This document shows positions 3,921 through 64,000 of a stretch of 64,000 bases of DNA, one piece after another. The stretch's first letter is position 1; each line of letters starts with the position of its first letter. Source of the stretch: Populus alba (taxonomy: Eukaryota > Streptophyta > Magnoliopsida > Malpighiales > Salicaceae). The notes beneath the pieces were generated by a model. The model ran no database searches. It saw only the letters and a list, made by a program, of their open reading frames with translations, and had not been told where the DNA came from. The translations under genes were made by a program, and so were the position numbers. The DNA is taken from NCBI RefSeq assembly GCF_005239225.2, contig NC_133293.1:3720001-3784000 (forward strand), written 5' to 3'.

Positions 3921-5250
3921 TGACATGATTAAATTATTGATATCTTCTCTTGAATGCAAGAGTGTCAAAATAATGAATAACTAAGCAAGACTAGGGTCAA
4001 TTCATAGAGAGGCTAATTATACAAAACCACAAATAATAAAATAAACAGAGTTGAAGACAACTTTGAGATATAATACTAATGTAAAGATTAAACAAAGATA
4101 AAACAATTTTCAAGGTTAGAGGATTTAATAATGGTATTTCAAATAAATATACTACAAACTCTTTTTATTACTTAATTGGAAAACACAAACAAAAGAGGTT
4201 CCAATTGGATGATGTATCATTAATATCTCATTTTAAGTTATTAACATGATTATATTAATTATTTTATTTGAGTAATGTCAATTATTGTAAATGTTGTCAA
4301 GGATTCATTGTGCTAACTTATATCAATCAAAAATCAAGATTCTTTCATAGCATAGGTTAGGGGTGATCATTTTGGGTTCGGTTCAGTTCGGTTTTTATTA
4401 ACAAAATAACCAAGTTGAATTTATTTTTTTTCAAAAAAAACCGAAACCAAACCGGTTTGGTTTTTTTAGGACAAAAACCGGTTCAAACCAGTTTGGCTTG
4501 ATTTTTTTTGTATGGCTTGGTTTTTTTGGTTTTGACTCGGGTTTTTTTCGGTTTGGCTCGGTTTTTGGTTTTGCCTCGGTTTTTTTTCCAATTTGACTCG
4601 ATTTTTTCCGTTTGGGTTTGGTTTAGTTTTTTTGGTTTTAGGCTTATAAAACCAAACCGAACCGGTTGGTTTTTTCAAAATTTTAATCAGTTTAATTATT
4701 ATTTTTACCGTTCGGTTTTTTCAGTTTTTTTTTTTTGTTTTCTCGGTTTAATCGATTTTTTTATTTTTTTGCTCACCCTTAGCATAGGTTTTGATTATCC
4801 ATACAATAGGCTATGAAAGAATCAAGTATTTATTATGCTAATGGTTGTACACCATGAATTTAAACTCACCACTTAGCAAGTACGGTATTAAGATTGGGTA
4901 AGTTAACAATTATAAAACATTTTAACAATTATAAACATTAAAATCAATGTTGAGTTTGTACTATATTTATTCTTACACCATTAGTGTAACATTTTCACCT
5001 TGATAAAATTAAACTTAACTAAACATATAAAAGAAAAAAAAACATAAATAAAAAAGATAAGAACATGACTATGATATAGATTAACTAAGTATAGTTAAGG
5101 AAATGATAAGTATAAACAAGAGATTAATAAAAATATAACATGAAATAAAACTTGAATATTACAAAAATAAAAATAAACAAAGCAAGAGCATGATCTTAAT
5201 ATGAAAATCAAGATGTTTAAATGTATGACAAATATCTCAAGTCAAAAGAC
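3921..5250 (-). repeat. Old, diverged solo LTR of the Athila family seen at 20.7 and 41.0 kb
   Basis: Sequence from 3921 (TGACATGATTAAATTATTGA, then 'tcttctcttgaatgcaagagtgtc') follows the LTR seen intact at 41031-43068 block by block. Shared blocks include the 'caaggttagagga' segment, 'ggtatttcaaa', 'ttccaattggatgat', 'cattaatatctcat', the 'aaacttaactaaacat' segment and the 'aaatgtatgacaaat' segment near 5225. It is much more diverged than the other copies and its right end is unclear (5250-5400). A hAT MITE has split it at 4358-4781. Orientation is given as the element's transcriptional sense (minus). Confidence 0.7.
4358..4781. mobile_element. hAT-type MITE rich in CGGTTT/AAACCG
   Basis: The 424-bp insertion has ends TAGGGGTGATCA (4358-4369) and the inverted TAAGGGTGAGCA (4770-4781). 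It is flanked by a perfect 8-bp target-site duplication GCATAGGT (4350-4357 and 4782-4789). TAGGGGTG ends with an 8-bp duplication are typical of a widespread plant hAT MITE group. The interior is a degenerate array of GGTTTNGG/CGGTTT-like motifs on one side and AAACCG on the other, so it can fold on itself. There is no coding capacity. Confidence 0.88.
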
Positions 5251-12437: not shown

Positions 12438-12632
12438 GAATAATAATAATAATAATAATATAGTAATGGTTAATTTTAATTATGATATCAATAATAATAA
12501 TAATTTTAATTGTGATTATGATACTAATAATAATCTGACTAATAATAATAATAATAACCACACTAATAATACTAAAAATAATAACAACAATAATAATCAT
12601 ACTAATAATAATAATAATAATATTAATAATAG
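12438..12632. repeat. Imperfect AAT/AAC trinucleotide array
   Basis: About 195 bp of interrupted AAT, AAC and ATT triplets. Open frames across it, rich in Asn or Ile, are artefacts of the triplet periodicity. Confidence 0.85.
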
Positions 12633-13454
12633 CAAATATATTTGACCCAAGTAGCTTGGATCTTACAGTATACTAAACCCAAATGACTTAGATCTGACAA
12701 TCATATTTGATTTAACAAATAAAAAAACAATTATGCATTTTAGTTGTCGAAAGAAAAAAAAAAAAAAAACATTAACAGCTACAAATACATCTCAAGAAAA
12801 AATAAAATAAAAAATTAAAAGTAAAACTACTATAATTCACAACAAAAAATTTATTAATCTACAGTAATTTCATCACACCATATCACTTAATTAGCATGTT
12901 GAGAAAAGATGCAAATTGAACAGATTCAAAGATCGATCACAGACATTGACTGAACAAGTTACCAAATTAAAAAACATGAGAATAAAAACGAATATTTGAC
13001 AAACATTAAGATAAATTTAGGATTTTGCCATAAAAGATAAGAAGAAATTACTAAAGACCACCAGTGTTTTACACCCTTTTCACGTGAACATGAGATCCAC
13101 TATAAATTATATTCACCAATCCCTCCTTCCTATTAGAAAGCAAGAAAAAACTTGGTGCACTGAATAATTTTTTGGCAAGAAGAATCCCTACATGCAGCTG
13201 TGAACACGGGTTTGGAAGGGATCAAAAGAATGGTCAGACACAGCAATTGACCAAATGAACTTTCATCACTTCGCAATACATAAGGTTTCCACCAGAGATC
13301 ACATAAATCCTAATCTATTTCATCAGTGAAAAATGAGTTACAGGTTGTGGGAATTAACAGTGATAAATCAACCAGAGATCATTTAATACTTTAAATTGAT
13401 CCACAATGGAAAAAGAAACCAGCTGCAATATAATATTGGCGTTGCACCACCACT

Positions 13455-20677: not shown

Positions 20678-20682
20678 GTACC

Positions 20683-22267
20683 TGACACGACTAAAAGATT
20701 GATGTCTTCTCCCAAGTGCAGAAGTGTCGAAGTAATAAATAACCTGGCAAGACCGGGGTCGAACCATAGGAAAGTTAATTGTATAAATTATAGATAACAA
20801 TAATACAACAACAACAATAACAACATTAGTAGTAATAGTAGTAGTAGTAAAGAAGTTGATGAGAACTTTAAGATGGAAAATTAATATAAAGATTAAACAA
20901 TAATAAAAACAAATGTCAAGGTTAGAGGATCCACTAATGGTATTTTAAACAAGTATAGTATAAACTCTTATTATTCAATTGGAAACCACCACAAAGAAGG
21001 TTCTAATCGGATGATTTATCATTAATAGCTTATTATAAATTATTAGCATGATCATATTAATTATCTTATTTAAGTAACACCAAACTTTTAAATATTGTTA
21101 GGAATTCATGATGTTAACTTATGTTAACAACAAATCAAGTTCTTTTCATAGCACATCCATACGGTTAGACTATGAGAGTGTCAAGCATTTGTTGTATCAA
21201 GTATTATTCAACACAAATCTAGATTAATCATTTAACAAGCAAGGTATTAAGAATTAGTAAGATAAAAAGATAAGACATGTTAATATTAAACATTAAGGTC
21301 CATGTTGAGTTTACACCATACTTATTCTTACACCATTAATGTAACCTTTTCACCTTGACATAATAAACTTAGCTAAACATAATGAAGAAGAGAAACATAA
21401 ATAAACAAAATAAGAACATAAATAAGATACAAGTTAACTAAGTAAAGTAAAGGAAATGAAAAGCATAAATAAAATATTAATGAAAGCAAAACTTAAGAAT
21501 TACAAAAAAAATATAAAGAGAGAGAACAAGAGCAAGTTCTTGATCTGAACAACCAAGCCCCTAAATACATGGCAAATGCCTCCTTTTATAGGCCAAAATT
21601 TAAAACTATTGATTTGATGACTAATTGTTGAGTAGGTGACCAACTCTTGACTTGGTAAAAATCCTTATCTTCTTGTCTAAATAAAACATCATTGCTAGCA
21701 TCACAATTGAAACCACCTATACTTATGAAAGTTATAGGAAATTGTCTTATCTTTTTAGGAAAAAAAAATTAAGGTCATTTGGACTTCTATAAATCGAGAT
21801 ATGAGCTAAACACTGAACAGTGTCTGGACTGCAGGACAGATTCGGACTTCTCCATTATTGCTATAATTTAAACTTGAAAACGACCTTTTTAAATCTTGGA
21901 CTCTACATGAAAGTTGTAGGCCTATGTCTTACCAAATTTTTCCAAAACTTTGAGGTTATTTGAACATCTAGAACTCGAGATATGACTCAATTACCGAATA
22001 GTATTTCAATTTGAACTGCACCAACATCTCTTTTCTAAGTTTGGCCCTTTCTTTATCCTTTCAATTTCAATACTTAAACTCATCAATAAATCCTTTCATT
22101 TATGTGATAGGCCTGCATTTAAGATGAACATTTACCATAAATTAAAGGTATCTTATATTATTAGGTATGTTATTATAAAACATGCTTTAATTAAGGAGTT
22201 ATTAATATTTTAAATGCAAAATGATGATATAAAACCTTGATAAAAATGCAATTTTAATTACTAATCA
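20683..22267 (-). mobile_element. Solo LTR of the Athila-type family (TSD GTACC)
   Basis: A single LTR of 1,585 bp with TGACACGACT at the left and ACTAATCA at the right, the same ends as the complete element at 22580-43068. It is flanked by a perfect 5-bp duplication GTACC (20678-20682 and 22268-22272). It shares most internal blocks with the intact LTR, including 'cctccttttatagg' near 21580-21592 (a TATAAAAGG promoter on the minus strand), but has many substitutions and lacks part of the microsatellite. It is thus an older insertion that lost its interior by LTR-LTR recombination. It interrupts the copia relic. Confidence 0.9.
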
Positions 22268-22574: not shown

Positions 22575-22702
22575 ATTGTTAACACGACCAAAAGATTGAT
22601 GTCTTCTCCAAGTGTAGGAGTGTCGAAGTAATAAATAACCTGGCAAGATCGGGGTCGAACCACAGAGAGGTTAATTGTATAAATTATAAATAACAAGACG
22701 AC

Positions 22703-22746
22703 AACAACAATAATAATAATAATAATAATATTAATAGTAGTAATAC

Positions 22747-22780
<34 letters not shown>

Positions 22781-22992
22781 CAATACGTGGCGTTGTTTAT
22801 ACCTGAGAATGATCTAAAAGATCGGGTCACAGGTTTCCAGCCTATATACTGAGTTTATGAAAAGATCAAAGAGATATATTATATAATATAAACAGATTTC
22901 TGATGCGAATGAACAAGGCAAGATCAACAATATCAGGATCCTTGATCAAACACAGAGCATACTTAACGTACATAAAATATAACAAGAATGTA

Positions 22993-23026
<34 letters not shown>

Positions 23027-23155
23027 TTAGTAATAATAATAATGATAATAATAACAATAAAAAGACGAGGAGGAGGAAGAGACAATAATAACAACAACAA
23101 TAATAATAATAATAACAACAATAATAACAATAACAACAATAATAATAACAATAAT
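22703..23155. repeat. AAT/AAC trinucleotide arrays inside the Athila LTR
   Basis: Two clusters of AAT/AAC triplets (22703-22784 and 22990-23155) are separated by unique LTR sequence. The same arrays occur in the other LTR at 41158-41250 and 41465-41635 with small length differences. Poly-Leu or poly-Asn open frames here are artefacts. Confidence 0.85.
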
Positions 23156-23714
23156 AAGAAAAGCAGGAAGAAATTAATGAGAACTTTGAGATGGAAGATT
23201 AATGTAAGGATTAAACAATAATAAAGACAAATGTCAAGGTTAGAGGATCCACCAATGGTATTTCAAACAAGTATAATATAAACTCTTATTACTCAATTTG
23301 GAAACCCACACACGAAGGAGGTTCCAGTCGGATGATTTGTCATTAATAGCTCATTATAAATTATTAACATAATCATATTAATTATCTTATGTACATAACA
23401 CCAAACTTTTAAATATTGTCAGGAATTCATGATGTTAACTGATGTTAACAACAAATCAAGTACCTTTCATAGCCCCAGGTGTAGGTAATACCATACGGTT
23501 GGGTTATGAGAGTGCCAAGCATTTGTTGTACCAAGTATTATACAACACAAATTTAGATTAACCATTTAACAAGCAAGGTATTAAGAATTAGTAAGATAAA
23601 AAGATAAGACATGTTAATATTAAACATTAAGGTCCATATTGAGTTTACACCATACTTGTTCTTACACCATTAGTGTAACCTTTTCACCTTGACATAATAA
23701 ACTTAGCTAAACAT

Positions 23715-25667
23715 TGTTGCTACCCAATTTTTGATTCATGTTTTTGATATATTTTCAAAAAATCCAAAAATAGAGAAAAACAATGAAAATCCAAAAAAAT
23801 ATGTTTTTTTTATATATTCTCGTCATTTTAGCATTTTCAACGTCGTCTAAAAAAGAATTTAAATTGTTAAAAGATTTTTCAAAACGCGTTCGACTTTTCA
23901 CGCGTTATTTTTTAAATCATTGATTTTTCCGCATTTTGAGTCGACGTTGATATTGCTCGTTTTCAAAAAATACAAAAAAATAAAAAAAATCAAAATTTAC
24001 AAAAAGAAAGAAGTTGAGGGACCAAGTTGAAAAACCTAGCAAAAGTTTTCCTATAAATACCATGCTAAACTGATTTTTGAGGGGGGGGCAATTTGGACAC
24101 ATTGCAGAAAAAAAACAAAAACCCTAAAAACCACTTTTTCTCCCCACTCACAAAGAACCAGCCGGCGGCGCCTCCCCTACTGGTTTTTGATTTTTTGTTC
24201 CCCGGGGTCCTTGGATTTCTCTCTCCAGAACCAGAGTCCAAGGACCCCCTACCATTTCTGATCCCACATTTTTACCCCGCCGTTTCCCCTTTCCTAAAAG
24301 AAGGCTAAGGCTGCTGCACCCCCCTGGATTTTTGATCTTCTTCCTCTTGAATCCGTTTCCCACAGCCCTCTCTCGGCTGCTCACTCCCTCTCCTTCAAAA
24401 AAAAAAAAAACAGAGACTGGCCCTCATTTCATTCAACAGCCGGCTTTTTTTTTCTATTTTTTCTTCACTTTTCCCCGCTGCACCACCATCTCCATCAACG
24501 CCGGCCTCCACCTTGACAGCAGCAGATCCAGCCGAAGCCCCCTTTCTCAGCAGCGTTTTCTTCTCCTCTCAATAGCAAGCGCCTCCACCCAGATCAACCC
24601 GCAGCTCCGGCGCTCCCCAGGTCTTCTCCCCTCAGCCGGAGCTTCCCTTTTTCTGTTGAAGACGACCGTTGCTTCCCCAGTTTGGACCCGTGGGTTTCTT
24701 CTCCTCTCAGCCATCGCCTCCTAGTTTCAGCAGCCAACAGAGACCCACTGCCATCCGAAGAAGGAAACAACAGCGACCCGGGAAGAAAGAAAAAGGAAAC
24801 AGATCTGAAAGAAGAAGAAGAAGGAGCAGATCGGAGAAGGAAGAAAGAACAAAAAATCAGATCCGAAAACAAAGAAATAAAAGCTTAAAATCGACTGTTT
24901 GTGCGTTTGTTTTTGTTGTAGATGATGTGGTTTCTTACCGTCTGCGGGGAGAGAAAAGGAAGAAGAAGCAGAATCCGGCCAACCCTTTTTTTCCGGCGTT
25001 CCACGCGCCGCCGCTGTCCAGCACTGTTCACGCGCCTAGCAGCCTTCCCGAGCACTGTTCCTGCGGTTCTGAATGGGTTCCCAGCACTGTTATGGATTGT
25101 TTAGGGACTGCTTTGTAATTTTAATGGGTTAATGTAATTTGTTTAGTTTTTTTTTTTATTTTTTTGTAATTGATATTTTGTAAATATGGATGTAAAAGAA
25201 AAGAAAAGAAAAGAAAAAGAAAAGAAAAAAACGAAAATAAAATAGTGAAAGTATATGTGTGTGCTTGTATTTTGTTTTATTTATCTGTATATATTTAAAA
25301 TGATAAAATTGCAAATTTATTAAAGAAGAATTTAATATTTGATCGGATCACGGTTAAGAATTATTAACTTATACGTAAGTGATATTTCTAATTTCCGACG
25401 AAAAGACAATTATTAAAACTTCTTTAACACCTTAAATTCGCGAAGCAGCTTACCTCAGGTAGGGTGTGTTAGGGGTGCTAATACCTTCCCTAACCACAAC
25501 CAGTTTCCTTACCCGCGAATCTTTGACAAGACCAGTCCATCCGGTTTCCTAGTAGCCTTCAATAAATTACTAGGTGGCGACTCCAACGAACCAAATTCAA
25601 GCAAATGCAACAACGAGAATTAAATCGCCAGCCGATGCCGCGCGCTGATTTTTTTTGGGGTGCGACA
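23715..25667 (+). repeat. 5' LTR of the nested LARD
   Basis: Begins TGTTGC and ends GCGACA. A TATA box CTATAAATAC lies at 24051-24060, just before a C-rich leader, and should drive transcription. The region after it (about 24150-25120) is GC-rich and gives long overlapping open frames on both strands (for example 24669-25118 plus), but these have no homology and differ between the two LTR copies because of indels. They are not genes. Confidence 0.9.
24051..24060 (+). promoter_or_regulatory. TATA box of the LARD 5' LTR
   Basis: CTATAAATAC in the U3 part of the LTR. In the 3' LTR the same site reads CTATAATAC (about 30124-30132), one A shorter, so only the upstream copy keeps a perfect box. 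Confidence 0.65.
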
Positions 25668-25670
25668 GAA

Positions 25671-25688
25671 TGGCGACTCCACTGGGGA
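25671..25688 (+). promoter_or_regulatory. Primer binding site of the LARD
   Basis: TGGCGACTCCACTGGGGA starts three bases after the 5' LTR. It begins with TGG (complement of CCA) and fits the acceptor stem of a plant tRNA-Arg ending GGAGTCG-CCA. The tRNA identity is from memory of the family. Confidence 0.75.
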
Positions 25689-26647
25689 AGGTACTGTTTC
25701 TAACATTATTGGACTAAGCTTTGTGTATTTGATGTGTTTAAGTTTTTGCATTTTTTATCTTTTTGTTAATATTTATTTCCATGTATTTTATAGAATTGTC
25801 TCATGCATCACCTGTATTTATTTTTAAACGCACACACAAGCTTCTAGGTTAGGTGGGGAACTAGCGATCTGCCCTAAGACTATTGGTCAGGGTTCAGATG
25901 CGTGAAACACCCAACTCATATCTGAGTGCCTGCTTGGTAATGGTGGGTATACGTGCCTTAACCATTCCTTGCAACGCCCCCATACTGTCTTTACGAAGAA
26001 CGTCACTGGGCAGATATGAGACCCTTTTGAGACCAGATAGAAAACCTACCCCTGTTCACATAATGAATAGAACCTGTCCTTAGGTTGTATGTGCTATTGT
26101 TATTTGCATAAGGGCAAACCCTTCTTGAAGCATCTTGAACTCAAGACTTATGGGTGACACATTGGCCGTTGCTCCGAAAATTTTCATTGTAGAGTTTGGG
26201 CAAAAATCACGATTCTTGTCCATCATACAAGAGTTACGACCATATTGTCACCTCTCGAAGGGTGAGTTCGTCATATAGATTACATGTTCATACATTTATC
26301 ATGCATGCGCCAGAATGAAAAGTAGGTCCCCTACGAGTCTACAACACCCGACTTTGAATGAAGAAAAACACGGAAGATGAACAATATGCTCGTCATAATT
26401 TTTGGAGACGTGTGTGACTCGCTTCTAGCTTACTCGAGCAGATATTGAAAAATAACTCTAGGAAAGTTCCTTCCAACCGACCTATCATCTTTGTTCAAAA
26501 CCCAATAATGACTCTGCCCGAAGAAATTGGGGGCAAAATTTGTCAAGAGCCTCGTTGTAATCATGTATTTTTCGCAAAAGCTTTGGTGGGAAGGCTGACC
26601 AAAGGGAATTGCATCACCGCTGCATATTGGAGCCTATTCTTGTTCTA

Positions 26648-26683
<36 letters not shown>

Positions 26684-28497
26684 AGTTTGATCATGCCTGC
26701 AAAATTTTCTTGATTTTTATTTCAACCTATTCCAGTTTTTGTTGGTAACTTGGCTCAAAATTCCGCAATATTTTCCTTGTCAAATGAGCCTTCTTGTTAA
26801 TAAGATCATGTGTTTTCTTGTGTTCATAACATACTTTCATTTTTGTTGTTGTTTCATGCACATAACATATTGAGCATAACCGTTAAGCATGAAAACCATC
26901 ACACCAAGAATCTTTGGGTGTGTTTCCTTTCTTTCAAAACTATGCATGATCGCACATGTTCACAAGGATTTTTGGGAATTCAAAGTTTAGTACAAAAACT
27001 GAAATCATGTTGATGTTTGTCCAAAGCAAACGAGTTCTGGAAATTCAGGTGATTCCTTAGAAAGGTAACCATACACCTAGAAAAACCCAAAAAAAAAAGA
27101 AAGCAAAAAAAAACAAACAAACAAACACCATGAAGTGACTCTAAAGCTGAGTTTTGATTGCATGAATAATGAGAAATCACTTTGCATACTCGCATGAAAG
27201 CAAGACTTACCGATCCTAAATGCATGCATTTGAGATGAAGAAAGGCCATCTTTGATAATCTTTTCACGAGGCTAAAATATATCATTTGCAGTCCCCTTTT
27301 GAGCCTAATAAATATTTCTTGAAAAATAACCTTGGCTAGGATCACACCCCACTGGGGGCAAGTGCGTTGACATTGAAAAAACTTCAATGATTGAAAGTGC
27401 CCAAGCAATACTAGGGGGCATAAAAGAAAATTCTCAATCATTAAAGGTGCCCAAACAAAGCTAGGGGGCACGAAGAAAAATCCAAAGGATCAAGAGTTTT
27501 GAGCATAAAAATAATAATAAAAAAAAACAATATTATGATGCTCAAAACCATATGAAGAAAACAAAAACAAAGAGAGTAAGCCCAAACCCAATACAAGGGG
27601 GCACGATAGACAATTTTTGAAAGACAGTCAAATGACAAAAGGTCAAGAAACAAGCACAAGTGATCCTTAGTCTTCAAATCCCTTAAACACCTTTTGAGCC
27701 TACAAATATCATTTTCTTCATAACCAAGAGCCCAAGCCTACATTACGTGCCTAATCAAGCCCTTTCTGATCAAAGGCAAGCAATCTGGATCGGTAGGCAA
27801 TGCTCTCTCATGTGAACCAAATCATTATTCATGGAAATAAAATATATGCTTTGAACCTCGGTTCTCAATAACCCTCAAATTGAAATTTAAACCTTTTCTG
27901 ACAAACCAGAGGTCACTTCATATTTTTTACCAAAACCCAAAACAAGAAGTTTTCATCACTTCTGATAACCTCTCCATAGAAATCACTTGAATGTTTTAGA
28001 ATGAGTTTGCTTTGAATCGATGTCAAAATAATTTTTGTGTTTGGAATAACTTTGGAATTTCAAAAATTCTGCATGAAAACAACTCCTTGTCAAACCTTCC
28101 TTCATATAGCCTCGTCCACAAAACCCGAATTGAACACTTGGGGGCATGATCAAGCTAAGGAGCAATAAAGAAACATATGATAGGGCAGGCTCCATGATTC
28201 CCATTCTAAGAAAATGTCGAGCAAAGTTGGCAAACCCTTGAGATAAAGGGGCGGAGGACAAAGAAGTACGATGATATCAAGTCTTTTCTAGAGGTAAAAA
28301 TCACAAGAGATGACTCGAGTAAGCAAGAGCGAAGAAGCCATCGAAGTTCACTGCCAACACTCCAACTTTTGAGAAAAGAAGAGACATCATGAAGAAAGGG
28401 GGACCTATTTTTTCTCAGGTAAGTATACATGCATATTGATCATAATGCATTGCTTTTAACATTGTCAGGTCGGTGTTTCATCATCATCTTTTGGGTA
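25689..28497 (+). other. LARD interior, non-coding leader
   Basis: No gag or pol motif is visible in any frame. A long A run sits at about 26649-26678. Three segments at 27340-27610 repeat the theme 'CAATACTAGGGGGCA', 'CAAAGCTAGGGGGCA' and 'CAATACAAGGGGGCA', polypurine-like tracts of the type found near the 3' end of Tat/Ogre elements. The interior therefore looks like leader and trailer joined after loss of the coding region. Confidence 0.6.
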
Positions 28498-29700
28498 GTG
28501 GTTTTCTAACCCTACCTCATTTTGAGTGCGCCTTTGAGCTCTCACCTCTTTCTGTGTGCGCCTTTGAGCTATCATCTCGGGTAGTGCGTTTTTTTCTAAC
28601 CCTACCTCATTTCGAGTGCGCCGTTGAGCCCTCACTTCTCAGGTAGCGCGTTTTCTAACCCTACCTCATTTCGAGTGCGCCTTTGAGCCCTCGCCAACAT
28701 TTTTTTGGGTAGGTCACCCATTACAATGAGACCGCACTTCATATTCTTTCTATTTGGGTAGGTCGCCCATCACAACGAGACCGTTCATCATATTTTTTCC
28801 ATCTGGGTAGGTCACCCATTACAATGAGACCCCACTTCATATTTTTTCCATTTTCGGGTAGGTCACCCATGACAATGAGACCGCACTTCATCATATTTTT
28901 TCCATCTGGGTAGGTCACCCATTACAATGAGACCACACTTCATCATATTTTTTCCATTTGGGTAGGTCACCCATTATAATGAGACCGCACATCACATTCG
29001 TTCTATTTGGGTAGGTCGCCCATCACAACGAGAACACCTTTTCATATTCTTTCCACGTGGGTAGGTCACCCATTACAATGAGACCACACTTCTTCACATT
29101 TTTTCCATTTTTGGGTCGGTCACCCATACAATGAGACCAGCATTTTTCCAGGGTTAGTCACCCGTACAATGAGACCAGCATTTTTCTAGGGTTCGTCACC
29201 CGTACAATGAGACCACCATAGGGTTCGTCACCCGTACAATGAGACCAATATAGGGTTCGTCACCCGTACAATGAGACCAACATAGGGTTCGTCACCCGTA
29301 CAATGAGACCAGCTTTTTTCTAGGGTTCGTCACCCGTACAATGAGACCAGCACTAGGGTTCGTCACCCGTACAATGAGACCAGCAGCACCAGGGTTCGTC
29401 ACCCGTACAATGAGACCAGAATGAGGTCGCCAGATGGGATCTCATGTAGCTTTGGTTAAAGGGAATCGCCAGATGGGATTTCAGGTTAACCGAGTTACGC
29501 ATATTTCGTTCCAGTTGAATGAGGTCGCCAGATGGGATCTCAGGTAAACCCAATGTGTGGGCAGGTCGCCCGTGAAAATAGACTATTGGGAGAGTGTGGG
29601 TCGGTCGCCCGTGAAAATAGACTAGGGTGAGTATGTGTGGGTCGGTCGCCCGTGAAAATAGACTAGGGTGAGTATGTGTGGGCAGGTCGCCCAAGATAAT
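28498..29700 (+). repeat. Cascade of related tandem arrays in the LARD
   Basis: At least five successive arrays of short imperfect repeats are present. About 28498-28700: units with 'CTAACCCTACCTCATTTCGA' and 'GTGCGCC'. About 28705-29125: roughly 50-bp units with GGGTAGGTCACCCATTACAA and 'TGAGACC'. About 29125-29420: 35-55-bp units with AGGGTTCGTCACCCGTACAA and 'TGAGACC'. About 29421-29545: units with GAGGTCGCCAGATGGGAT. About 29555-29700: units with GGTCGGTCGCCCGTGAAAAT. A GGTC(A/G)CCC-like core runs through arrays two, three and five. There are no unique spacers, so this is not a CRISPR-like array. Confidence 0.9.
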
Positions 29701-29776
29701 GAAATCATTTTCCTTTTGTTTTCTTTACAAAGCTTACTATGCAAAATTTTGAGGAGTTTTGCTTCGTAAGCATTGT

Positions 29777-29788
29777 AAAGAGGGGGCA
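29777..29788 (+). other. Polypurine tract of the LARD
   Basis: AAAGAGGGGGCA ends two bases before the 3' LTR and should prime plus-strand DNA synthesis. Confidence 0.75.
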
Positions 29789-29790
29789 TC

Positions 29791-31735
29791 TGTTGCTACC
29801 CAATTTTTGATTCATGTTTTTGATATATTTTCAAAAAATCCAAAAATAGAGAAAAACAATGAAAATCCAAAAAAATATGTTTTTTTTATATATTCTCGTC
29901 ATTTTAGCATTTTCAACGTCGTCTAAAAAAGAATTTAAATTGTTAAAAGATTTTTCAAACGCGTTCGACTTTTCACGCGTTATTTTTAAATCATTGATTT
30001 TCCGCATTTTGAGTCGACGTTGATATTGCTCGTTTTCAAAAAATACAAAAAAATAAAAAAAATCAAAATTTACAAAAAGAAAGAAGTTGAGGGACCAAGT
30101 TGAAAAACCTAGCAAAAGTTTTCCTATAATACCATGCTAAACTGATTTTTGAGGGGGGGGCAATTTGGACACATTGCAGAAAAAAAACAAAAACCCTAAA
30201 AACCACTTTTTCTCCCCACTCACAAAGAACCAGCCGGCGGCGCCTCCCCTACTGGTTTTGATTTTTTGTTCCCCGGGGTCCTTGGATTTCTCTCTCCAGA
30301 ACCAGAGTCCAAGGACCCCCTACCATTTCTGATCCCACATTTTACCCCGCCGTTTCCCCTTTCCTAAAAGAAGGCTAAGGCTGCTGCACCCCCCTGGATT
30401 TTTGATCTTCTTCCTCTTGAATCCGTTTCCCACAGCCCCTCTCTCGGCTGCTCACTCCCTCTCCTTCAAAAAAAAAAAAACAGAGACTGGCCCTCATTTC
30501 ATTCAACAGCCGGCTTTTTTTTTCTATTTTTTCTTCACTTTTCCCCGCTGCACCACCATCTCCATCAACGCCGGCCTCTACCTTGACAGCAGCAGATCCA
30601 GCCGAAGCCCCCTTTCTCAGCAGCGTTTTCTTCTCCTCTCAATAGCAGCGCCTCCACCCAGATCAACCCGCAGCTCCGGCGCTCCCCAGGTCTTCTCCCC
30701 TCAGCCGGAGCTTCCCTTTTTCTGTTGAAGACGACCGTTGCTTCCCCAGTTTGGACCCGTGGGTTTCTTCTCCTCTCAGCCATCGCCTCCTAGTTTCAGC
30801 AGCCAACAGACCCACTGCCATCCGAAGAAGGAAACAACAGCGACCCGGGAAGAAAGAAAAAGGAAACAGATCTGAAAGAAGAAGAAGAAGGAGCAGATCG
30901 GAGAAGGAAGAAAGAACAAAAAATCAGATCCGAAAACAAAGAAATAAAAGCTTAAAATCGACTGTTTGTGCGTTTGTTTTTGTTGTAGATGATGTGGTTT
31001 CTTACCGTCTGCGGGGAGAGAAAAGGAAGAAGAAGCAGAATCCGGCCAACCCTTTTTTTCCGGCGTTCCACGCGCCGCCGCTGTCCAGCACTGTTCACGC
31101 GCCTAGCAGCCTTCCCGAGCACTGTTCCTGCGGTTCTGAATGGGTTCCCAGCACTGTTATGGATTGTTTAGGGACTGCTTTGTAATTTTAATGGGTTAAT
31201 GTAATTTGTTTAGTTTTTTTTTTATTTTTTTTGTAATTGATATTTTGTAAATATGGATGTAAAAGAAAAGAAAAGAAAAGAAAAAGAAAAGAAAAAAACG
31301 AAAATAAAATAGTGAAAGTATATGTGTGTGCTTGTATTTTGTTTTATTTATCTGTATATATTTAAAATGATAAAATTGCAAATTTATTAAAGAAGAATTT
31401 AATATTTTGATCGGATCACGGTTAAGAATTATTAACTTATACGTAAGTGATATTTCTAATTTCCGACGAAAAGACAATTATTAAAACTTCTTTAACACCT
31501 TAAATTCGCGAAGCAGCTTACCTCAGGTAGGGTGTGTTAGGGGTGCTAATACCTTCCCTAACCACAACCAGTTTCCTTACCCGCGAATCTTTGACAAGAC
31601 CAGTCCATCCGGTTTCCTAGTAGCCTTCAATAAATTACTAGGTGGCGACTCCAACGAACCAAATTCAAGCAAATGCAACAACGAGAATTAAATCGCCAGC
31701 CGATGCCGCGCGCTGATTTTTTTTGGGGTGCGACA
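29791..31735 (+). repeat. 3' LTR of the nested LARD
   Basis: Same ends as the 5' copy. Differences from it are mostly single-base gains or losses in short homopolymers (e.g. 'aaacgcg' against 'aaaacgcg', 'tataatacc' against 'tataaatacc', 'aatattttgatc' against 'aatatttgatc') with very few substitutions. Confidence 0.9.
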
Positions 31736-32625
31736 AACATAATGAAGAAGAAAAACATAAATAAATAAAACAAGAACATAAAAAAAATACAAGTTAACTA
31801 AGGAAAGGAAAGGAAATGAAAAGCATAAACAAGAAATTAATAAAAGCAAAGCTTAAGAATTACAAAAAATATAAAGAGAGAAATAAAGAGCATGAACTTG
31901 ATCTGAACAACCAAGCCCCTAAATACATGGCAAATGCCTCCTTTTATAGGCTAAAATTCGGAATTATTGCTTTGATGACTCATTGTTGAGTGGGTGGCCA
32001 ACTTTTGACTTAGTGAAAATCCTTATCATCTTGTCTAAATAAAACAAAAATGCTAGCATCAGAACTGGGTCCAGATGTCCAAATGAAAGTTCTGCGAAAT
32101 TCTCTTAGCTTTCCAGCAAAAAAAAAAGATGAGGTCATTTGGACTTCTAGAACTCAAGATATGGGCTGAACACTGAATAGTGTTTGGGCTGCAGGACAGC
32201 TTCGGACTTCTCCGTTGTTGCTATTATTTGGACTTGAAAACGGCCTTCTTAGATCTTGATGTCCAAATGAAAGTTGTAGGCCTATGTCTTATCAAATCTC
32301 TGTAAAAATTTCAGATCATTTGGATATCTAGAACTCGAGATATGACCCAATTACCGAACAGTGTTCCAGTTTGGACTGCACCAACATCTCTTTTCTAAGC
32401 TTCACCCTTCTTTATCTTCAAAATTTCAGTAGTTGAATTCATCAATCAATCCTTTGATTTATGTGATATGCCTGCATTTAAGATGAACATTTACCATATA
32501 TTAGGGTAATTTATAATATTAGACTTGTTATTATAAAACATGCTTTAGTTAAGGAGTTATTGATACTTTAAGTGCAAAATGATGATATAAACCCTTGATA
32601 AACATGCACTTTTAAGTACTAATCA

Positions 32626-32637
32626 CACCCCCCAACC
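32626..32637 (-). other. Polypurine tract of the Athila element
   Basis: GGTTGGGGGGTG on the minus strand, directly next to the 5' end of the 3' LTR (TGATTAGTACTT). It follows a typical 'CTAGGGACTAGTAATAAGC' segment. Confidence 0.8.
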
Positions 32638-33833: not shown

Positions 33834-34487
33834 TTACAAACAAAGGCTCAAATCCAATTTAAGCTTTTTACGGCTTTCCTGAGTTGACCAATTTATGCGA
33901 CTCATGGAAGGATTAATTACAGGGATGAAAGATTGTAGTTGGTCAATCAATTGTTCAGCAGTAGCAGCAGAGATTATGATTTGTCGTGCTGAAGATGTTA
34001 GAAACTCCTGTTCCACAGCATGATCAAGAAAAGACAACAACTGATCATAAAAACCATTAACATTTAACAAACCTATGGGTTTATGGTGAATGTGCAGTTG
34101 GGCCCAAGAGGAAATATGAAAGATCTCTTCCAATGTGCCCAAACCTCCTGGTAAGGCAATGAAGGCATCAGCATGGTTAAACATGGCATTCAGTCGATCA
34201 GACATTGTGGGGACTTGTAATTCCTCTCCAATTGTTTTTCCAATGATGTCCCCTTGTGCTAAAGCTTTGGGAACTACCCCCAAAACTTGACTACCTCCTA
34301 AAAATGCAGCTATTGACACTCCCCCCATTAACCCAAGGCTACCTCCTCCATACACTAAATGAATCTTTCGCTCAGCTAGTACCTGACCAAGATGATTTGC
34401 TGATTCTAAAAACTCTTTTTCTTTCCCGGGATTGGATCCACCAAAAACACAAATTTTGTTTATGTGATTACTTGAGGAACCTGCCAT
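33834..34487 (-). CDS. LOG-family cytokinin riboside 5'-monophosphate phosphoribohydrolase carried by a retrotransposon
   Basis: LOG enzymes release active free-base cytokinin from cytokinin nucleotides in one step. This 217-aa ORF is intact and intronless. It has the N-terminal Rossmann start (KICVFGGSNPG, 11-21), LVYGGGSLGLMGG (44-56), a conserved Arg98 in MSDRLNAMF, the family signature PGGLGTLEE (113-121, with Glu121), WAQLHIHHKPIGLLN and NGFYDQLLSFLDHAVEQEF. Length matches plant LOG proteins (about 215-230 aa). It departs from canonical LOG1-8 at several places (SDRLNAM where HxRKAxM is usual; LGTLEEIF for YGTLEELL). Plant chromosomal LOG genes normally have several introns, so this looks like a processed copy. 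It sits between the cysteine-rich ORF and the 3' LTR of the Athila element, in the same orientation. A TATA-like box lies 65-72 bp upstream. Catalytic activity is inferred, not shown. Confidence 0.93.
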   Translation of the reverse strand: MAGSSSNHINKICVFGGSNPGKEKEFLESANHLGQVLAERKIHLVYGGGSLGLMGGVSIAAFLGGSQVLGVVPKALAQGDIIGKTIGEELQVPTMSDRLNAMFNHADAFIALPGGLGTLEEIFHISSWAQLHIHHKPIGLLNVNGFYDQLLSFLDHAVEQEFLTSSARQIIISAATAEQLIDQLQSFIPVINPSMSRINWSTQESRKKLKLDLSLCL

Positions 34488-34551
34488 TTCTACACACGTA
34501 TGTATTTAATGAATGTATGGGTGGAGTAGAAATGAAGGGAAGGAAGAGAAG

Positions 34552-34559
34552 AATTTATA
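34552..34559 (-). promoter_or_regulatory. Possible private TATA box for the LOG ORF
   Basis: TATAAATT on the minus strand, followed by a pyrimidine-rich stretch (TCTTCTCTTCCTTCCC) and then the LOG start codon at 34487. A start site about 30 bp downstream would give a leader of roughly 35-40 nt. A CA/CT dinucleotide tract (GAGA/GTGT on the minus strand) lies further upstream at about 34616-34643. Position and context are seen; promoter function is inferred. Confidence 0.4.
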
Positions 34560-34615
34560 GATGAGAAATTGAAAATGCAATCATATCACCTATATGTAGG
34601 CCAGCTGTAGTCTTA

Positions 34616-34643
34616 CACACACACACACTCTCTCTCTCTCTCT
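34616..34643. repeat. (CA)n(CT)n compound microsatellite
   Basis: Alternating CA then CT dinucleotides between the cysteine-rich ORF and the LOG ORF. On the coding strand this is a GA-repeat, a sequence bound by plant GAGA-type factors; whether it matters here is unknown. Confidence 0.8.
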
Positions 34644-34746
34644 TTATTAATTATTTATTTTGAAAAAGCATATGTATGTACAGGTAGTTGTGATTATGGC
34701 TCACATCTTCCCTTGGTTTTACGTCCAAGAACGGCTTAAACGCCCT

Positions 34747-35355
34747 CTATGGGTCGGGGATAGGCTTCCCATCCAGTTTTCTTAAAAACTGGCAAACAGG
34801 GTCTTTTTTAGTCAGATTCCCAAGACTAAGTCGAGCATGTTCTTTATGGAATTGGGGCCATAAATCATAAATTGCACGATGCACATCTCCACTAGGGTGC
34901 GTCTCAAGAGTCAATAGAAAATTATATAAAGACCCCTTACTCAGGCCATCCTTAATGAATTGTATTTTATCTTCACGGTTTACAGATACCATTCCTAAAG
35001 AACGACATGTCGCATTACAAGTCCATCTAGCACATCGGTGACAGACTTTCAGTCGTTTTACACGACGTTTCTTCGCAAAAGTGCTCTTACCTGTTCCAGG
35101 CATGTATGAAATGAAAGAATTGGAGGACTCACCTGATAATCGGACCTTTGCTTCAATCAGCCAACGAATATCTTCAGGAATTCCATGGTTCATTAACAAC
35201 CTCAATCTTGCACATCTAGCACGGTAAATTTTTGTAATCGCATTCTGAGGCAGAGCGGGAAAATACTTTTTCAATTTTTCAAGAGTTGTGTCCATTTTCA
35301 ACTGAGAATTGGGGGAGAGATTCAAAGAAAGAAGAAAGAGCAGAGAATTGCACAA
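34747..35355 (-). CDS. Cysteine-rich basic protein resembling Betaflexiviridae nucleic-acid-binding proteins
   Basis: This is an intact 202-aa ORF between integrase and the LOG ORF of the Athila element. The centre has a basic run KKRRVKRLK (95-103) followed at once by a Cys cluster C105-x2-C108-x4-C113-x3-C117, preceded by GKSTFA and followed by VNREDKIQFIKDGLS. This combination is characteristic of the small cysteine-rich nucleic-acid-binding proteins near the 3' end of carlavirus- and vitivirus-like genomes (Betaflexiviridae), which bind RNA or DNA, enter the nucleus and often suppress silencing. The assignment is by pattern recognition. Residues 1-80 and 120-202 extend beyond the usual viral protein and are unrecognised. 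A second in-frame Met (M21, 35295) may be the true start, since residues 1-20 are hydrophobic and unlike the rest. The basic run could serve as a nuclear-localisation signal. It is not a gag zinc knuckle (C-x2-C-x4-H-x4-C), and the gag region has its own Cys motif. Confidence 0.65.
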   Translation of the reverse strand: MCNSLLFLLSLNLSPNSQLKMDTTLEKLKKYFPALPQNAITKIYRARCARLRLLMNHGIPEDIRWLIEAKVRLSGESSNSFISYMPGTGKSTFAKKRRVKRLKVCHRCARWTCNATCRSLGMVSVNREDKIQFIKDGLSKGSLYNFLLTLETHPSGDVHRAIYDLWPQFHKEHARLSLGNLTKKDPVCQFLRKLDGKPIPDP

Positions 35356-35505
35356 TTATATACACAGATATCAGTTATCATGGGAAACTGAAAGAACCGA
35401 CTTAAAAGTCACGGAGTACCGTTATCCGCCATTTGACCGGGTGAGAGAAACTAGCAAAAACAAAAGATATACCAAAACAAACACAAAACAATGTGAGAAA
35501 AAGAA

Positions 35506-39043: not shown

Positions 39044-40794
39044 TTATATTTTCAAAGCATTATTGTTCTGAAGAATAGCACTTACTTGTTCGGCTAAAAA
39101 GGCTTTCTTTTTCACATTCAGTTTTCTCTTCACAGTGCATAGATCTTTCAAAAATTTAGCATAGGAAGGTACCTGTTTAATAGCATCCAACAAAGGTATA
39201 TTGATCCTTACCTGTTTAAAAATTTCAAGGATTTCAGAATTGTGATTGACTTTCCTTTGTTTGGTCATGGCATGAGGAAATGGAAGTGCTGGCGGAGAAT
39301 CAGTCTTTTCTTCACAACGTTCAAATTCAACCCCTTCCTTACCCTCAGAGATTGACTCATCATCTTTCTCACAAGGTTCAAGAGTGGGTTTTTCAATAAC
39401 CTTACCGCTGCGAAGAGTGATGACTGATTTGACTTGATCCATGTGTTGGCTTTCAGAACTACTTGCATTTGCATTGTATTGCCCCTTTGGATTTTGTTGT
39501 GGTTGAGATGGAAACTTACCTTTCTCTTGAAAACTGAGAGCAGATGTGAATTTTGCAAGAGCATCTTTAAAATTTGTCATGCTTTGAGTAAGTTGAGTGT
39601 TGATTGTCTCTTGCTTTTCAATGAATGCATGCAATGTTTCCTCAAGATTTCTTCTAGGAGGTGGAGCATAAGGAGGTGCATATCCATGAGAATTTTGGAA
39701 ATTATGGTGTGCTTGAAACGGTGGCTGTGAAGTTTGTGCATTATTGTTATCACTCTTCCAACTGAAATTTGGGTGATTTCTCCAACCAGGATTGTATGTT
39801 TGCGAGTATGGGTTATGATTGGGCCTTTGGAAACTGTTTAAGGCATGGGCTTGTTCATGGAGACATTCCTTGAAAGAAGGCAAAGTTGGACAGTTATTGG
39901 TTGCATGTTTATTTGTTTCACAGATTTGACACACAATGTCTTGAACAGATTTTAATTGACCACTCTTTTTCAATTCTAGTGCCTCGACTTTTCTAGCTAA
40001 AGATGTAAACTTGGCTTGGAGGTCATGATCTTCCCTAAGGTTATACATACCTCCACTAGATGTATGAGGTTGGGTTTTACTTGGTGCCTCATAAGTGCCC
40101 TTAGTGTCCCAATTTTGCGCATTTTCAGCTAGCAAGTCTAAGTACTCCATTGCTTCATTAGGGTCTTTATCCTCAAAAGTTCCATTGCACATCAATTCAA
40201 CCATTTGCCTATCTTTAGGTGTTAATCCTTCATAAAATTGTGAAACCAATCTCCATGTTTCAAAACCATGATGAGGGCAAGTATTAAGCAAGTCTCGATA
40301 CCTATCCCAACATTGGTAAAATGTTTCTCCTGGTTTTTGAGTGAAAGTGGTGATTTGTCTTTTGAAAGAGTTGGTTCTATGAGATGGAAAAAAACTTCTT
40401 TAAAAACTGTTGTTGCATTTCATCCCAAGCACGAATGGATCCTGACCTAAGATTTTTGTAGCCATGTTTTAGCTTTATCTTTTAATGAAAAAGGAAAAAA
40501 GCTTTAATCAAATGGTGTTCATGCTACAATTTAAGTCATTATAGGTGTTTACAAACTTCTTCAAATTCTCTCAAATGCAAGTATGGATTTTCTAGATCTA
40601 AGCCATGAAAAGAAGGTAAAAGTTGAATAATGCCTGGCTTAAAATTAAAATGGGATGCATCAGGAGGGAAAACTATGCATGAGGGTGCACTTGTTTCTTG
40701 TAGGATTCATGTGGTCTCTAAGTGTCCTAACACGGTTATTCTCATTATTCTCATTATTCTCATTATGAAGTGATTGGTTATCTTCTTCGGCCAT
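39044..40794 (-). pseudogene. Athila gag (frameshifted)
   Basis: The likely start is the Met at 40794 (MAEEDNQSLHNENNENN, with a possible further upstream start at 40860). The first part, to about 40660, is followed by the capsid region in shifted frames, then a long frame 40291-39044 with CWDRYRDLLNTCPHHGFETW, FYEGLTPKDRQMVELMCNG, a Cys motif CQICETNKHATNNCP and a Pro/Gln-rich part. It ends in EQVSAILQNNNALK before one extra A breaks the continuous gag-pol frame. At least three one-base indels interrupt the gag part. The domain order and capsid motifs are those of Athila-lineage retrotransposons. Confidence 0.88.
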
Positions 40795-41006: not shown

Positions 41007-41024
41007 TCCCCGGCAACGGCGCCA
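41007..41024 (-). promoter_or_regulatory. Primer binding site complementary to tRNA-Asp
   Basis: On the minus strand TGGCGCCGTTGCCGGGGA lies six bases inside the 5' LTR end. It is the exact complement of the 3' end of plant tRNA-Asp(GTC) with CCA added, the primer used by Athila elements. Confidence 0.92.
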
Positions 41025-41030: not shown

Positions 41031-41466
41031 TGACACGACCAAAAGATTGATGTCTTCTCCCAAGTGTAGGAGTGTCGAAGTAATAAATAACCTGGCAAGA
41101 TCGGGGTCGAACCACAGAGAGGTTAATTGTATAAATTATAAATAACAAGACAACAACAACAATAATAATAATAATAATAATATTAATAGTAGTAATACTA
41201 ATAATAATAATAATAATAATATAATAATAATAATAATAATAATAATACTCAATACGTGGCGTTGTTTATACCTGAGAATGATCTAAAAAGATCGGGTCAC
41301 AGGTTTCCAGCCTATATACTGAGTTTATGAAAAGATCAAAGAGATATATTATATAATATAAACAGATTTCTGATGCGAATGAACAAGGCAAGATCAACAA
41401 TATCAGGATCCTTGATCAAACACAGAGCATACTTAACGTACATAAAATATAACAAGAATGTAAATA

Positions 41467-41497
<31 letters not shown>

Positions 41498-43068
41498 TTA
41501 GTAATAATAATAATGATAATAATAACAATAAAAAGACGAGGAGGAGGAAGAGACAATAATAACAACAACAATAATAATAATAATAACAACAATAATAACA
41601 ATAACAACAATAATAATAACAATAATAAGAAAAGCAGGAAGAAATTAATGAGAACTTTGAGATGGAAGATTAATGTAAGGATTAAACAATAATAAAGACA
41701 AATGTCAAGGTTAGAGGATCCACCAATGGTATTTCAAACAAGTATAATATAAACTCTTATTACTCAATTTGGAAACCACACACGAAGGAGGTTCCAGTCG
41801 GATGATTTGTCATTAATAGCTCATTATAAATTATTAACATAATCATATTAATTATCTTATGTACATAACACCAAACTTTTAAATATTGTCAGGAATTCAT
41901 GATGTTAACTGATGTTAACAACAAATCAAGTACCTTTCATAGCCCCAGGTGTAGGTAATACCATACGGTTGGGTTATGAGAGTGCCAAGCATTTGTTGTA
42001 CCAAGTATTATACAACACAAATTTAGATTAACCATTTAACAAGCAAGGTATTAAGAATTAGTAAGATAAAAAGATAAGACATGTTAATATTAAACATTAA
42101 GGTCCATATTGAGTTTACACCATACTTGTTCTTACACCATTAGTGTAACCTTTTCACCTTGACATAATAAACTTAGCTAAACATAATGAAGAAGAAAAAC
42201 ATAAATAAATAAAACAAGAACATAAAAAAAATACAAGTTAACTAAGGAAAGGAAAGGAAATGAAAAGCATAAACAAGAAATTAATAAAAGCAAAGCTTAA
42301 GAATTACAAAAAATATAAAGAGAGAAATAAAGAGCATGAACTTGATCTGAACAACCAAGCCCCTAAATACATGGCAAATGCCTCCTTTTATAGGCTAAAA
42401 TTCGGAATTATTGCTTTGATGACTCATTGTTGAGTGGGTGGCCAACTTTTGACTTAGTGAAAATCCTTATCATCTTGTCTAAATAAAACAAAAATGCTAG
42501 CATCAGAACTGGGTCCAGATGTCCAAATGAAAGTTCTGCGAAATTCTCTTAGCTTTCCAGCAAAAAAAAAGATGAGGTCATTTGGACTTCTAGAACTCAA
42601 GATATGGGCTGAACACTGAATAGTGTTTGGGCTGCAGGACAGCTTCGGACTTCTCCGTTGTTGCTATTATTTGGACTTGAAAACGGCCTTCTTAGATCTT
42701 GATGTCCAAATGAAAGTTGTAGGCCTATGTCTTATCAAATCTCTGTAAAAATTTCAGATCATTTGGATATCTAGAACTCGAGATATGACCCAATTACCGA
42801 ACAGTGTTCCAGTTTGGACTGCACCAACATCTCTTTTCTAAGCTTCACCCTTCTTTATCTTCAAAATTTCAGTAGTTGAATTCATCAATCAATCCTTTGA
42901 TTTATGTGATATGCCTGCATTTAAGATGAACATTTACCATATATTAGGGTAATTTATAATATTAGACTTGTTATTATAAAACATGCTTTAGTTAAGGAGT
43001 TATTGATACTTTAAGTGCAAAATGATGATATAAACCCTTGATAAACATGCACTTTTAAGTACTAATCA
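41031..43068 (-). repeat. 5' LTR of the Athila element
   Basis: This 2,038-bp LTR starts (minus sense) TGATTAGTACTT at 43068 and ends GTCGTGTCA at 41031. A strong TATA box CCTATAAAAGG lies at 42394-42384 on the minus strand, giving the probable transcription start about 30 bp further on. AAT/AAC arrays sit at 41158-41250 and 41465-41635. The sequence is almost identical to the two halves of the other LTR. Confidence 0.95.
42384..42394 (-). promoter_or_regulatory. TATA box of the Athila 5' LTR
   Basis: CCTATAAAAGG on the minus strand, conserved in the other LTR (about 31940-31950) and in the older solo LTR (about 21580-21592). Conservation across LTRs of different age supports a real promoter element. 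Confidence 0.75.
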
Positions 43069-43073
43069 ATTGT

Positions 43074-46771: not shown

Positions 46772-64000
<17,229 letters not shown>

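What the first reader, a model, noticed from the sequence alone, without database searches (positions are those of the whole stretch)
33834..35355. A full-length Athila retrotransposon carries a cytokinin-activating enzyme and a virus-like nucleic-acid-binding protein in the env position
Between integrase and the polypurine tract of an element with intact LTRs, tRNA-Asp primer site and 5-bp TSD sit two open, same-sense ORFs that are not retrotransposon genes: a 202-aa Cys-rich basic protein and a 217-aa LOG-family enzyme. LOG enzymes release active cytokinin; the viral family that the first ORF resembles binds nucleic acid in the nucleus, commonly suppresses silencing, and in one carlavirus has been reported to act as a transcription factor that promotes cell enlargement and division. 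Together they suggest a module that keeps cells dividing or reprograms host tissue, which would help an element that must enter the germ line from meristems, or help a virus-like stage. This functional reading is inference. The arrangement itself is directly visible.
Basis: partly seen in the sequence, partly recalled or inferred. Interest (0 to 1): 0.95.

Follow-up and report, generated by a model that had tools for sequence, protein, structure and literature searches.

The report
Jumping gene carrying plant-hormone enzyme
A family of virus-like jumping genes in white poplar carries, in many copies, a gene that looks able to switch on a plant growth hormone and another that resembles a plant-virus protein, and both show signs of having been kept by natural selection, which hints that the element manipulates its host.

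Summary
The arrangement is real and recurrent. On the minus strand of a Populus alba contig lies a young Athila-type LTR element (TSD ATTGT; LTR pair 2 substitutions in 2019 aligned bases) with NABP (182 aa, not 202) and LOG (217 aa) between integrase and polypurine tract. NABP lies just upstream in 39 of 40 fetched LOG copies (36 full-length, 3 partial). Six of six tested insertions have distinct 5-bp TSDs. dN/dS between subfamilies is 0.23 for LOG, 0.24 for NABP, and 0.29 for LOG copies found through NABP. Seven copies without RT still carry an open LOG, five of them a full-length NABP. Populus and Xanthoceras LOGs of this type form one clade outside the sampled seed-plant LOGs (support 96), so the capture looks old. 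TATA-like boxes stand 65-72 bases before both ORFs in most copies. LOG in such elements is in print for Citrus and P. trichocarpa; I found no report of the NABP partner, the selection or the RT-less carriers. Function (raise cytokinin, counter silencing) remains inference. The window copy's own pol is broken.

The parts
41031..43068 (-). 5' LTR of the Athila element (element reads on the minus strand)
   Evidence: pairs with the 3' LTR, 2 substitutions in 2019 aligned bases
41007..41024 (-). primer binding site (tRNA-Asp type; tRNA identity recalled)
   Evidence: sequence read
39044..40291 (-). gag reading frame (table-11 ORF)
   Evidence: about 94-95% protein match in RT-less copies, one of which was shown to carry PF03732
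36220..38286 (-). pol piece: RT, RNase H, integrase zinc-binding domain; stops inside the integrase core
35296..35370 (-). upstream region of NABP with a TATA-like box 67-69 bases before the ATG and a pyrimidine-rich leader
   Evidence: TATA-like box in 23 of 23 copies examined
34747..35295 (-). NABP-like Cys-rich protein, 182 aa, basic stretch plus C-X2-C-X4-C-X3-C
34488..34565 (-). upstream region of LOG with a TATA-like box 72 bases before the ATG and a pyrimidine-rich leader
   Evidence: TATA-like box 65-72 bases upstream in 36 of 38 copies examined; block conserved between subfamilies
33834..34487 (-). LOG-family protein (cytokinin riboside 5'-monophosphate phosphoribohydrolase family), 217 aa, one uninterrupted ORF
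32626..32637 (-). polypurine tract
   Evidence: sequence read
31741..32625 (-). 3' LTR, first piece (LOG side)
22580..23714 (-). 3' LTR, second piece, beyond the nested insertion
22575..22579 (.). target site duplication ATTGT
43069..43073 (.). target site duplication ATTGT

Best explanation
An apparently old lineage of Athila LTR retrotransposons in rosid plants carries a two-gene accessory module in the env position. LOG is most likely an active cytokinin-releasing enzyme, and NABP a nuclear, zinc-finger, nucleic-acid-binding protein of the kind found in carla- and allexiviruses. Both probably act in trans on the host cell: LOG raises free cytokinin locally and so favours dividing, meristem-like cells in which new insertions can be inherited, while NABP blunts silencing or alters host transcription. 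They may be made from their own small internal promoters rather than from the LTR transcript. Shown here: the arrangement, its recurrence at independent insertions, purifying selection between subfamilies, and retention of LOG in copies without RT. Suggested by a tree: an old capture. Inferred: catalysis, expression, internal promoters, and the benefit to the element.
For: LOG lies 1.15-1.32 kb before an LTR in 20 of 20 long stretches. Of 40 fetched LOG copies NABP is open in 26, full-length with a stop or frameshift in 10, partial in 3 and outside the stretch in 1, L021; one search lists an NABP just beyond that stretch without stops. NABP-first sample of 11: LOG full-length in 9, partial in 1, absent in 1. 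Independent insertions: 6 of 6 tested have distinct 5-bp TSDs. Selection: LOG A-B 0.23, NABP A-B 0.24; LOG in NABP-first copies 0.29; yardsticks RT A-B 0.19, gag 0.17. RT-less copies. Catalytic motif intact in 39 of 41 copies, the window included. NABP relatives at 68-72% identity in Acer and Xanthoceras; 34 of 35 members match Viral_NABP. Xanthoceras gene model LOG - Athila gag piece - LOG. TATA-like boxes. Functions of viral relatives: passages of PMC12172455.
Against: No expression or activity data. LOG copies were ranked by similarity to the window protein, which biases LOG intactness and within-group dN/dS downwards; in the NABP-first sample most LOGs are broken, and within its B copies dN/dS is 0.47. 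NABP variation within groups is mostly near neutral (A: 20 nonsynonymous + 1 stop against 11 synonymous, P 0.24; B with RT: P 0.68), with dN/dS 0.51 within A and 0.68 within the four B copies with RT. Among 120 database LOG relatives 80 keep the motif I searched, and among 120 NABP relatives 84 keep the four-Cys spacing, so many copies are decayed. A TATA-like box within 80 bases of AT-rich DNA is not rare by chance (not computed), and the NABP TATA block itself changes by 10% between subfamilies. Whether RT-less copies kept LOG by selection or by recombination with RT-bearing ones is not separated (LOG dS between B with RT and RT-less only 0.06). NABP's viral kinship rests on modest scores.
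Confidence: 0.5

Rival explanations
1. LOG serves nucleotide metabolism or signalling other than cytokinin: it hydrolyses other nucleoside monophosphates, or clears nucleotide-derived immune signals, inside the cell or the particle.
For: LOG belongs to the wider SLOG/TIGR00730 Rossmann-fold superfamily; the element clade is far from the host enzymes (45-48% identity) and lies outside the sampled plant LOG3-type and LOG8-type sequences; the NCBIfam cytokinin-specific model scores below its cutoff.
Against: The residues shared with Arabidopsis LOG3 and LOG8 include the arginine and PGGxGTxxE; the best solved match is an Arabidopsis LOG.
Confidence: 0.2
2. NABP is a replication or packaging protein of the element (an extra nucleocapsid or chaperone) rather than a host-directed suppressor; LOG is the only host-directed gene.
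For: RT-less copies keep gag, and 5 of 7 a full-length NABP, 4 of them open; NABP has a basic stretch and a four-Cys finger.
Against: Three of 40 copies carry only the C-terminal part of NABP and one of these, L028, has its two LTRs identical over the 1093 bases compared, so full NABP from the same copy is not needed for its movement.
Confidence: 0.2
3. Passenger module: captured sequence carried along without benefit, kept similar only because copies are young.
For: Young insertions; NABP within-group variation mostly near neutral; LOG reported before as a presumed transduced cell gene (Steinbauerova 2011, recalled, not seen).
Against: A-B dN/dS 0.23-0.29 for LOG and 0.24 for NABP, close to RT and gag; relatives in Xanthoceras at 58-59% (LOG) and 72% (NABP) identity; between A and B the LTR differs by about 18% and the LOG-to-LTR stretch by 10-18%, LOG by 7-8%.
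Confidence: 0.1

Closest known systems
Athila clade of plant Ty3/gypsy (OTA) retrotransposons with extra ORFs 3' of pol (Athila4, Calypso; Wright and Voytas 2002, recalled; Neumann 2019, PMC6317226, passages; Vicient 2020, PMC7264820, passages)
   Same: RT, RNase H, integrase order, no additional RNase H found, 2-kb LTRs, 5-bp TSD, extra ORFs 3' of pol in sense
   Different: The extra ORFs are a LOG-family protein and a viral-type NABP
YgdH/LOG domain in LTR-element consensuses of Citrus sinensis, C. clementina and (filter off) Populus trichocarpa (PMC9289625, passages; Steinbauerova et al. 2011, Genetica, not held; its LOGL4-like Athila ORFs recalled)
   Same: LOG-family domain in Gypsy elements, same genus
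   Different: The passages I saw mention no NABP partner, selection test, RT-less carriers, internal promoters or placement of this LOG in a tree
Plant LONELY GUY enzymes, Arabidopsis At2g37210 (LOG3, 2a33) and At5g11950 (LOG8, 1ydh); the LOG3 and LOG8 names are recalled
   Same: Family domain, catalytic arginine and PGGxGTxxE
   Different: 45-48% identity; element LOGs of Populus and Xanthoceras form a separate clade
Cysteine-rich/nucleic-acid-binding proteins of carla- and allexiviruses (PF05515, PF01623)
   Same: Pfam scores above both cutoffs; basic stretch followed by Cys finger
   Different: Match covers residues 36-120 of 182 only; a conserved C-terminal part lies beyond it; direction of transfer unknown; no residue-level comparison with viral members was made
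Gypsy elements with captured cell domains, e.g. the m6A demethylase domain in orchid elements (PMC9289625, title, abstract start and passages)
   Same: Captured cellular enzyme domain in a plant Gypsy element
   Different: Different enzyme; here paired with a viral-type gene

Membership tests
Athila clade | RT-RNase H-integrase order with no additional RNase H (aRH marks Tat) | tested here: met
   RT, RNase H, then integrase zinc-binding domain; no second RNase H match; criterion from PMC6317226 passages
Athila clade | RT phylogenetic placement within Athila | not tested
   no tree of RT with reference elements was made
Athila clade | PBS complementary to tRNA-Asp | tested here: inconclusive
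   18-base site read; tRNA match and its link to Athila recalled, not computed
Athila clade | Athila ORF-1 domain (PF03078) | tested here: not met
   no match; PMC6317226 reports it in only 16% of Athila elements, so it does not define the clade
LOG family | PF03641 domain with catalytic Arg and PGGxGTxxE | tested here: met
   (39 of 41 copies); motif as family mark recalled
LOG family | cytokinin riboside monophosphate phosphoribohydrolase activity | not testable with these tools
   NCBIfam equivalog model matched at 115.8 bits, below its cutoff of 300, so that rule does not assign the name
Viral NABP / cysteine-rich protein family | PF05515 score above curated cutoff | tested here: met
   window protein 27.5 against 23 bits; 34 of 35 aligned members match at E up to 0.01
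Viral NABP / cysteine-rich protein family | same fold as viral members | not tested
   no structure job was accepted (19 attempts, queue full)
Viral NABP / cysteine-rich protein family | nuclear localisation, nucleic-acid binding, silencing suppression | not testable with these tools
   bench work

The most novel reading that the evidence does not exclude
An LTR retrotransposon lineage has, since before the poplar and soapberry lineages diverged (or through transfer between them), kept a host-manipulation cassette of a hormone-activating enzyme plus a viral-type nuclear zinc-finger protein, each with its own promoter, working in trans; even derivatives that dropped reverse transcriptase keep gag and LOG and mostly NABP, like satellites that still contribute to the shared manipulation of the host.
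Probability: 0.35. Interest if true: 0.92.

Novelty: new variant of a known kind. Interest (0 to 1): 0.76.

Why it matters
If the module works as inferred, a genomic parasite of plants controls a growth hormone of its host, as gall-forming microbes do, but from within the genome. It makes an open question (what are the extra 3' ORFs of Athila-type elements for?) directly testable with an enzyme that has a simple assay. It also warns that element-type LOGs are named as host genes in databases (P. trichocarpa and P. nigra 'LOGL10').

Tried and rejected
Considered and set aside: (1) single-copy capture or misassembly: excluded by recurrence, with separate TSDs at the six sites tested. (2) Recent capture of a Populus LOG messenger: the Populus element LOGs do not group with Salix or other plant LOGs but with the Xanthoceras ones (14 plant sequences picked by me out of 120 listed; long branches are a caution; no P. 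alba host LOG was in the tree). (3) Viral records: no relative of NABP or LOG was confirmed among viral contigs by the tool's close search. (4) Solved structures: none for NABP up to E 1.

Led nowhere: the host's own LOG genes could not be fetched, because the genome search did not complete. The codon-model run printed no omega, so only Nei-Gojobori values are used. Codons nearly fixed between A and B were too few to test. The statement that I found no report of the NABP partner, selection or RT-less carriers rests. Papers: PMC9289625, PMC6317226, PMC7264820, PMC3136472, PMC3866579 and PMC12172455 were seen as passages (and listings); the others only as search listings; Steinbauerova 2011 and Wright and Voytas 2002 were not seen (recalled). 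Mutation rates were not used, so no ages in years are given.

Rows dropped before counts: L041 was in neither subfamily (18 A and 22 B for LOG, 18 and 19 for NABP); L021 has no NABP in its fetched stretch; copies with 20 or more gapped bases were left out, of the NABP motif count and; one search left out copies with under 100 bases upstream and L041. In one search partial NABPs were kept, and the RT-less NABP value there is 0.67.

Full report
WHAT IS THERE. The window lies in Populus alba: it is on contig C10 of a 416-Mb assembly, whose contig C1 has the same length, 54,846,348, as a contig whose proteins NCBI names Populus alba. On the minus strand sits an LTR element: 5' LTR 41031-43068; 3' LTR in two pieces, 31741-32625 and 22580-23714, parted by a nested LTR element; TSD ATTGT on both sides. 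Inside are gag, a pol piece (RT, RNase H, integrase zinc-binding domain), then NABP 34747-35295 and LOG 33834-34487, then about 1.2 kb and the polypurine tract. Pol is broken here; three of the 20 long copies have a pol ORF of 1058-1059 aa.

HOW COMMON. The true copy number is not known. Twenty LOG sites were fetched with 9.9 kb each: in 20 of 20 LOG lies 1.15-1.32 kb before an LTR related to the window's. With 20 shorter stretches, NABP lies just upstream of LOG in 39 of 40: 26 open, 10 with a stop or frameshift, 3 only as a C-terminal part; in the one left (L021) the stretch began too late, and one search lists an NABP there. All 40 LOGs lack stops and frameshifts in the aligned part (one has a 3-base deletion), but LOG was the bait and the list is ranked by similarity. 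Sampled the other way round, 11 NABP sites without a LOG in the top list had a full-length LOG next to NABP in 9, a partial one in 1 and none in 1; most of these LOGs are broken, as expected from that choice.

TWO SUBFAMILIES AND AN RT-LESS FORM. By LOG and LTR similarity copies fall into A (like the window; LTR first 1400 bases 95-99.6%) and B (81-83%). Of 12 B copies with long stretches, 4 have RT, 7 have no match to RT or to most of RNase H in the element's sense, and 1 (L021) cannot be judged. One RT-less copy, L026, was examined with Pfam: a single 1016-aa ORF with Retrotrans_gag, an aspartyl protease match (22.3 bits, below its 24.3 cutoff) and the integrase zinc-binding domain, but no RT, RNase H or integrase core; the other six were not scanned. 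All 7 keep an open LOG; NABP is open in 4, full-length with one stop in 1 (L023) and partial in 2 (L020, L028). Six of these 7 were tested for TSDs: CCAGT, AGCCA, TATAA, GTGAT, CCATT, GCCTC, all different, each on both sides (L020 with one changed LTR end base). Their LTR pairs, compared over the part in hand, differ by 0 in 346 (L017), 0 in 308 (L025), 0 in 1093 (L028), 0 in 242 (L026), 3 in 237 (L023) and 27 in 1256 bases (L020); the window's pair by 2 in 2019. So several carriers of the module, with and without RT, inserted recently, and L020 earlier.

SELECTION. Nei-Gojobori means (LOG 18 A and 22 B copies, NABP 18 and 19): LOG dN/dS 0.29 within A, 0.22 within B, 0.23 between A and B; NABP 0.51, 0.23 and 0.24. 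In the NABP-first sample, LOG gives 0.29 between subfamilies, 0.32 within A and 0.47 within B. Yardsticks on the long copies plus the window: RT region 0.19 between A and B, 0.30 within A; gag 0.17 (window against RT-less). In that smaller set NABP is 0.31 between A and B with RT, 0.47 within A, 0.68 within B with RT and 0.67 within RT-less copies, where partial NABPs are included. Nucleotide comparison: between A and B the LTR differs by about 18%, the LOG-to-LTR stretch by 10-18%, LOG by 7-8%, and full-length NABP by 4-8%. Against the reading: counts of single-change variants within groups show fewer non-synonymous changes than expected for LOG in all five groupings (for example 10 of 23 in RT-less copies, P 0.003), but for NABP only in the pooled B group (P 0.008), and the LOG counts carry the ascertainment bias. 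Codons nearly fixed between A and B are too few to test (LOG 10 synonymous, 5 not; NABP 2 and 3).

WHAT THE PROTEINS ARE. LOG: 48% and 45% identical to Arabidopsis LOG3 and LOG8, with the arginine and PGGxGTxxE kept; motif intact in 39 of 41 P. alba copies, the window included; among 120 database relatives 80 keep it by my search pattern, the rest showing varied changes, the commonest Pro to Leu in 10. In a tree of 30 sequences the Populus element LOGs and two LOG domains from Xanthoceras sorbifolium gene models form one clade (support 96), apart from the 14 seed-plant LOGs sampled (100) and from two bacterial ones. The Xanthoceras model P0241 holds a piece of Athila gag between two LOG domains (52% identity to the window's gag, E 5e-15), so LOG sits with Athila there too. 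NABP: 34 of 35 aligned members match Viral_NABP; basic stretch and C-X2-C-X4-C-X3-C, the four Cys intact in 34 of 37 P. alba copies and the spacing in 84 of 120 database relatives; relatives in Xanthoceras and Acer are 72% and 68% identical. Whether NABP and LOG lie together in Xanthoceras could not be seen. A fold comparison could not be run.

EXPRESSION HINT. A TATA-like box stands 65-72 bases before the LOG ATG in 36 of 38 copies and 67-69 bases before the NABP ATG in 23 of 23, followed by a pyrimidine-rich leader. Between A and B the LOG block from -75 to -46 changes by 1-2% and the block -105 to -91 by 1%; before NABP, blocks from -150 to -91 change by 0-2% except one at 9%, while the NABP TATA block changes by 10%. 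This suggests internal promoters, but a box of this kind is not rare in AT-rich DNA and no transcript was seen.

MECHANISM. Best supported: a host-directed accessory module. LOG enzymes turn cytokinin nucleotides into active bases and matter for meristem activity (PMC3866579 passages); viral proteins of the cysteine-rich kind are reported as silencing suppressors, and that of chrysanthemum virus B as a transcription factor causing hyperplasia (PMC12172455 passages). An element that must reach the next generation from shoot meristems would gain from both. This last step is inference.

PRIOR WORK. PMC9289625 reports the YgdH (LOG) domain in LTR-element consensuses from two Citrus species and, with its filter off, P. 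trichocarpa, in line with Steinbauerova et al. 2011, which as I recall noted LOGL4-like ORFs in two Athila-like elements. A survey of Populus cytokinin genes counts 13 LOG genes and has no word beginning with transpos in its main text. I found nothing on the NABP partner, selection or RT-less carriers.

VERDICT. A real, recurrent module under constraint in a young element family; the LOG half was known, the pair and its retention look new; function untested.

Noticed in passing
23715-31735: Nested LTR element inside the Athila 3' LTR: LTRs of about 1.95 kb (3 substitutions in 1943 aligned bases), TSD AACAT, interior with short tandem repeats at 28702-29418; no ORF longer than 163 aa listed there, so probably non-autonomous.
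   Followed up: partly
46887-48361: Tandem array of a 255-base unit, about 5.8 copies, with an inner 108/147-base substructure.
   Followed up: no
20680-22267: Diverged Athila LTR pieces (about 86-88% to the element's LTR) directly beside the element's left end.
   Followed up: no
4032-5212 and 12439-12635: Fragments about 70-79% similar to the same LTR.
   Followed up: no
P0200, P0226 (proteins): Database proteins called LOGL10 in Populus trichocarpa and P. nigra are 82-84% identical to the window LOG and group with element LOGs; the P. nigra one has Lys just before the motif's last glutamate, the motif itself being kept.
   Followed up: partly
L020:4208-4438, L028:4046-4276, L041: Some copies carry a diverged NABP of which only the C-terminal part aligns (58% protein identity in L020 and L028), perhaps another NABP lineage swapped in.
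   Followed up: no
35386-35445: A conserved block about 91-150 bases upstream of NABP, nearly unchanged between subfamilies except for one 15-base stretch at 9%; function unknown.
   Followed up: no
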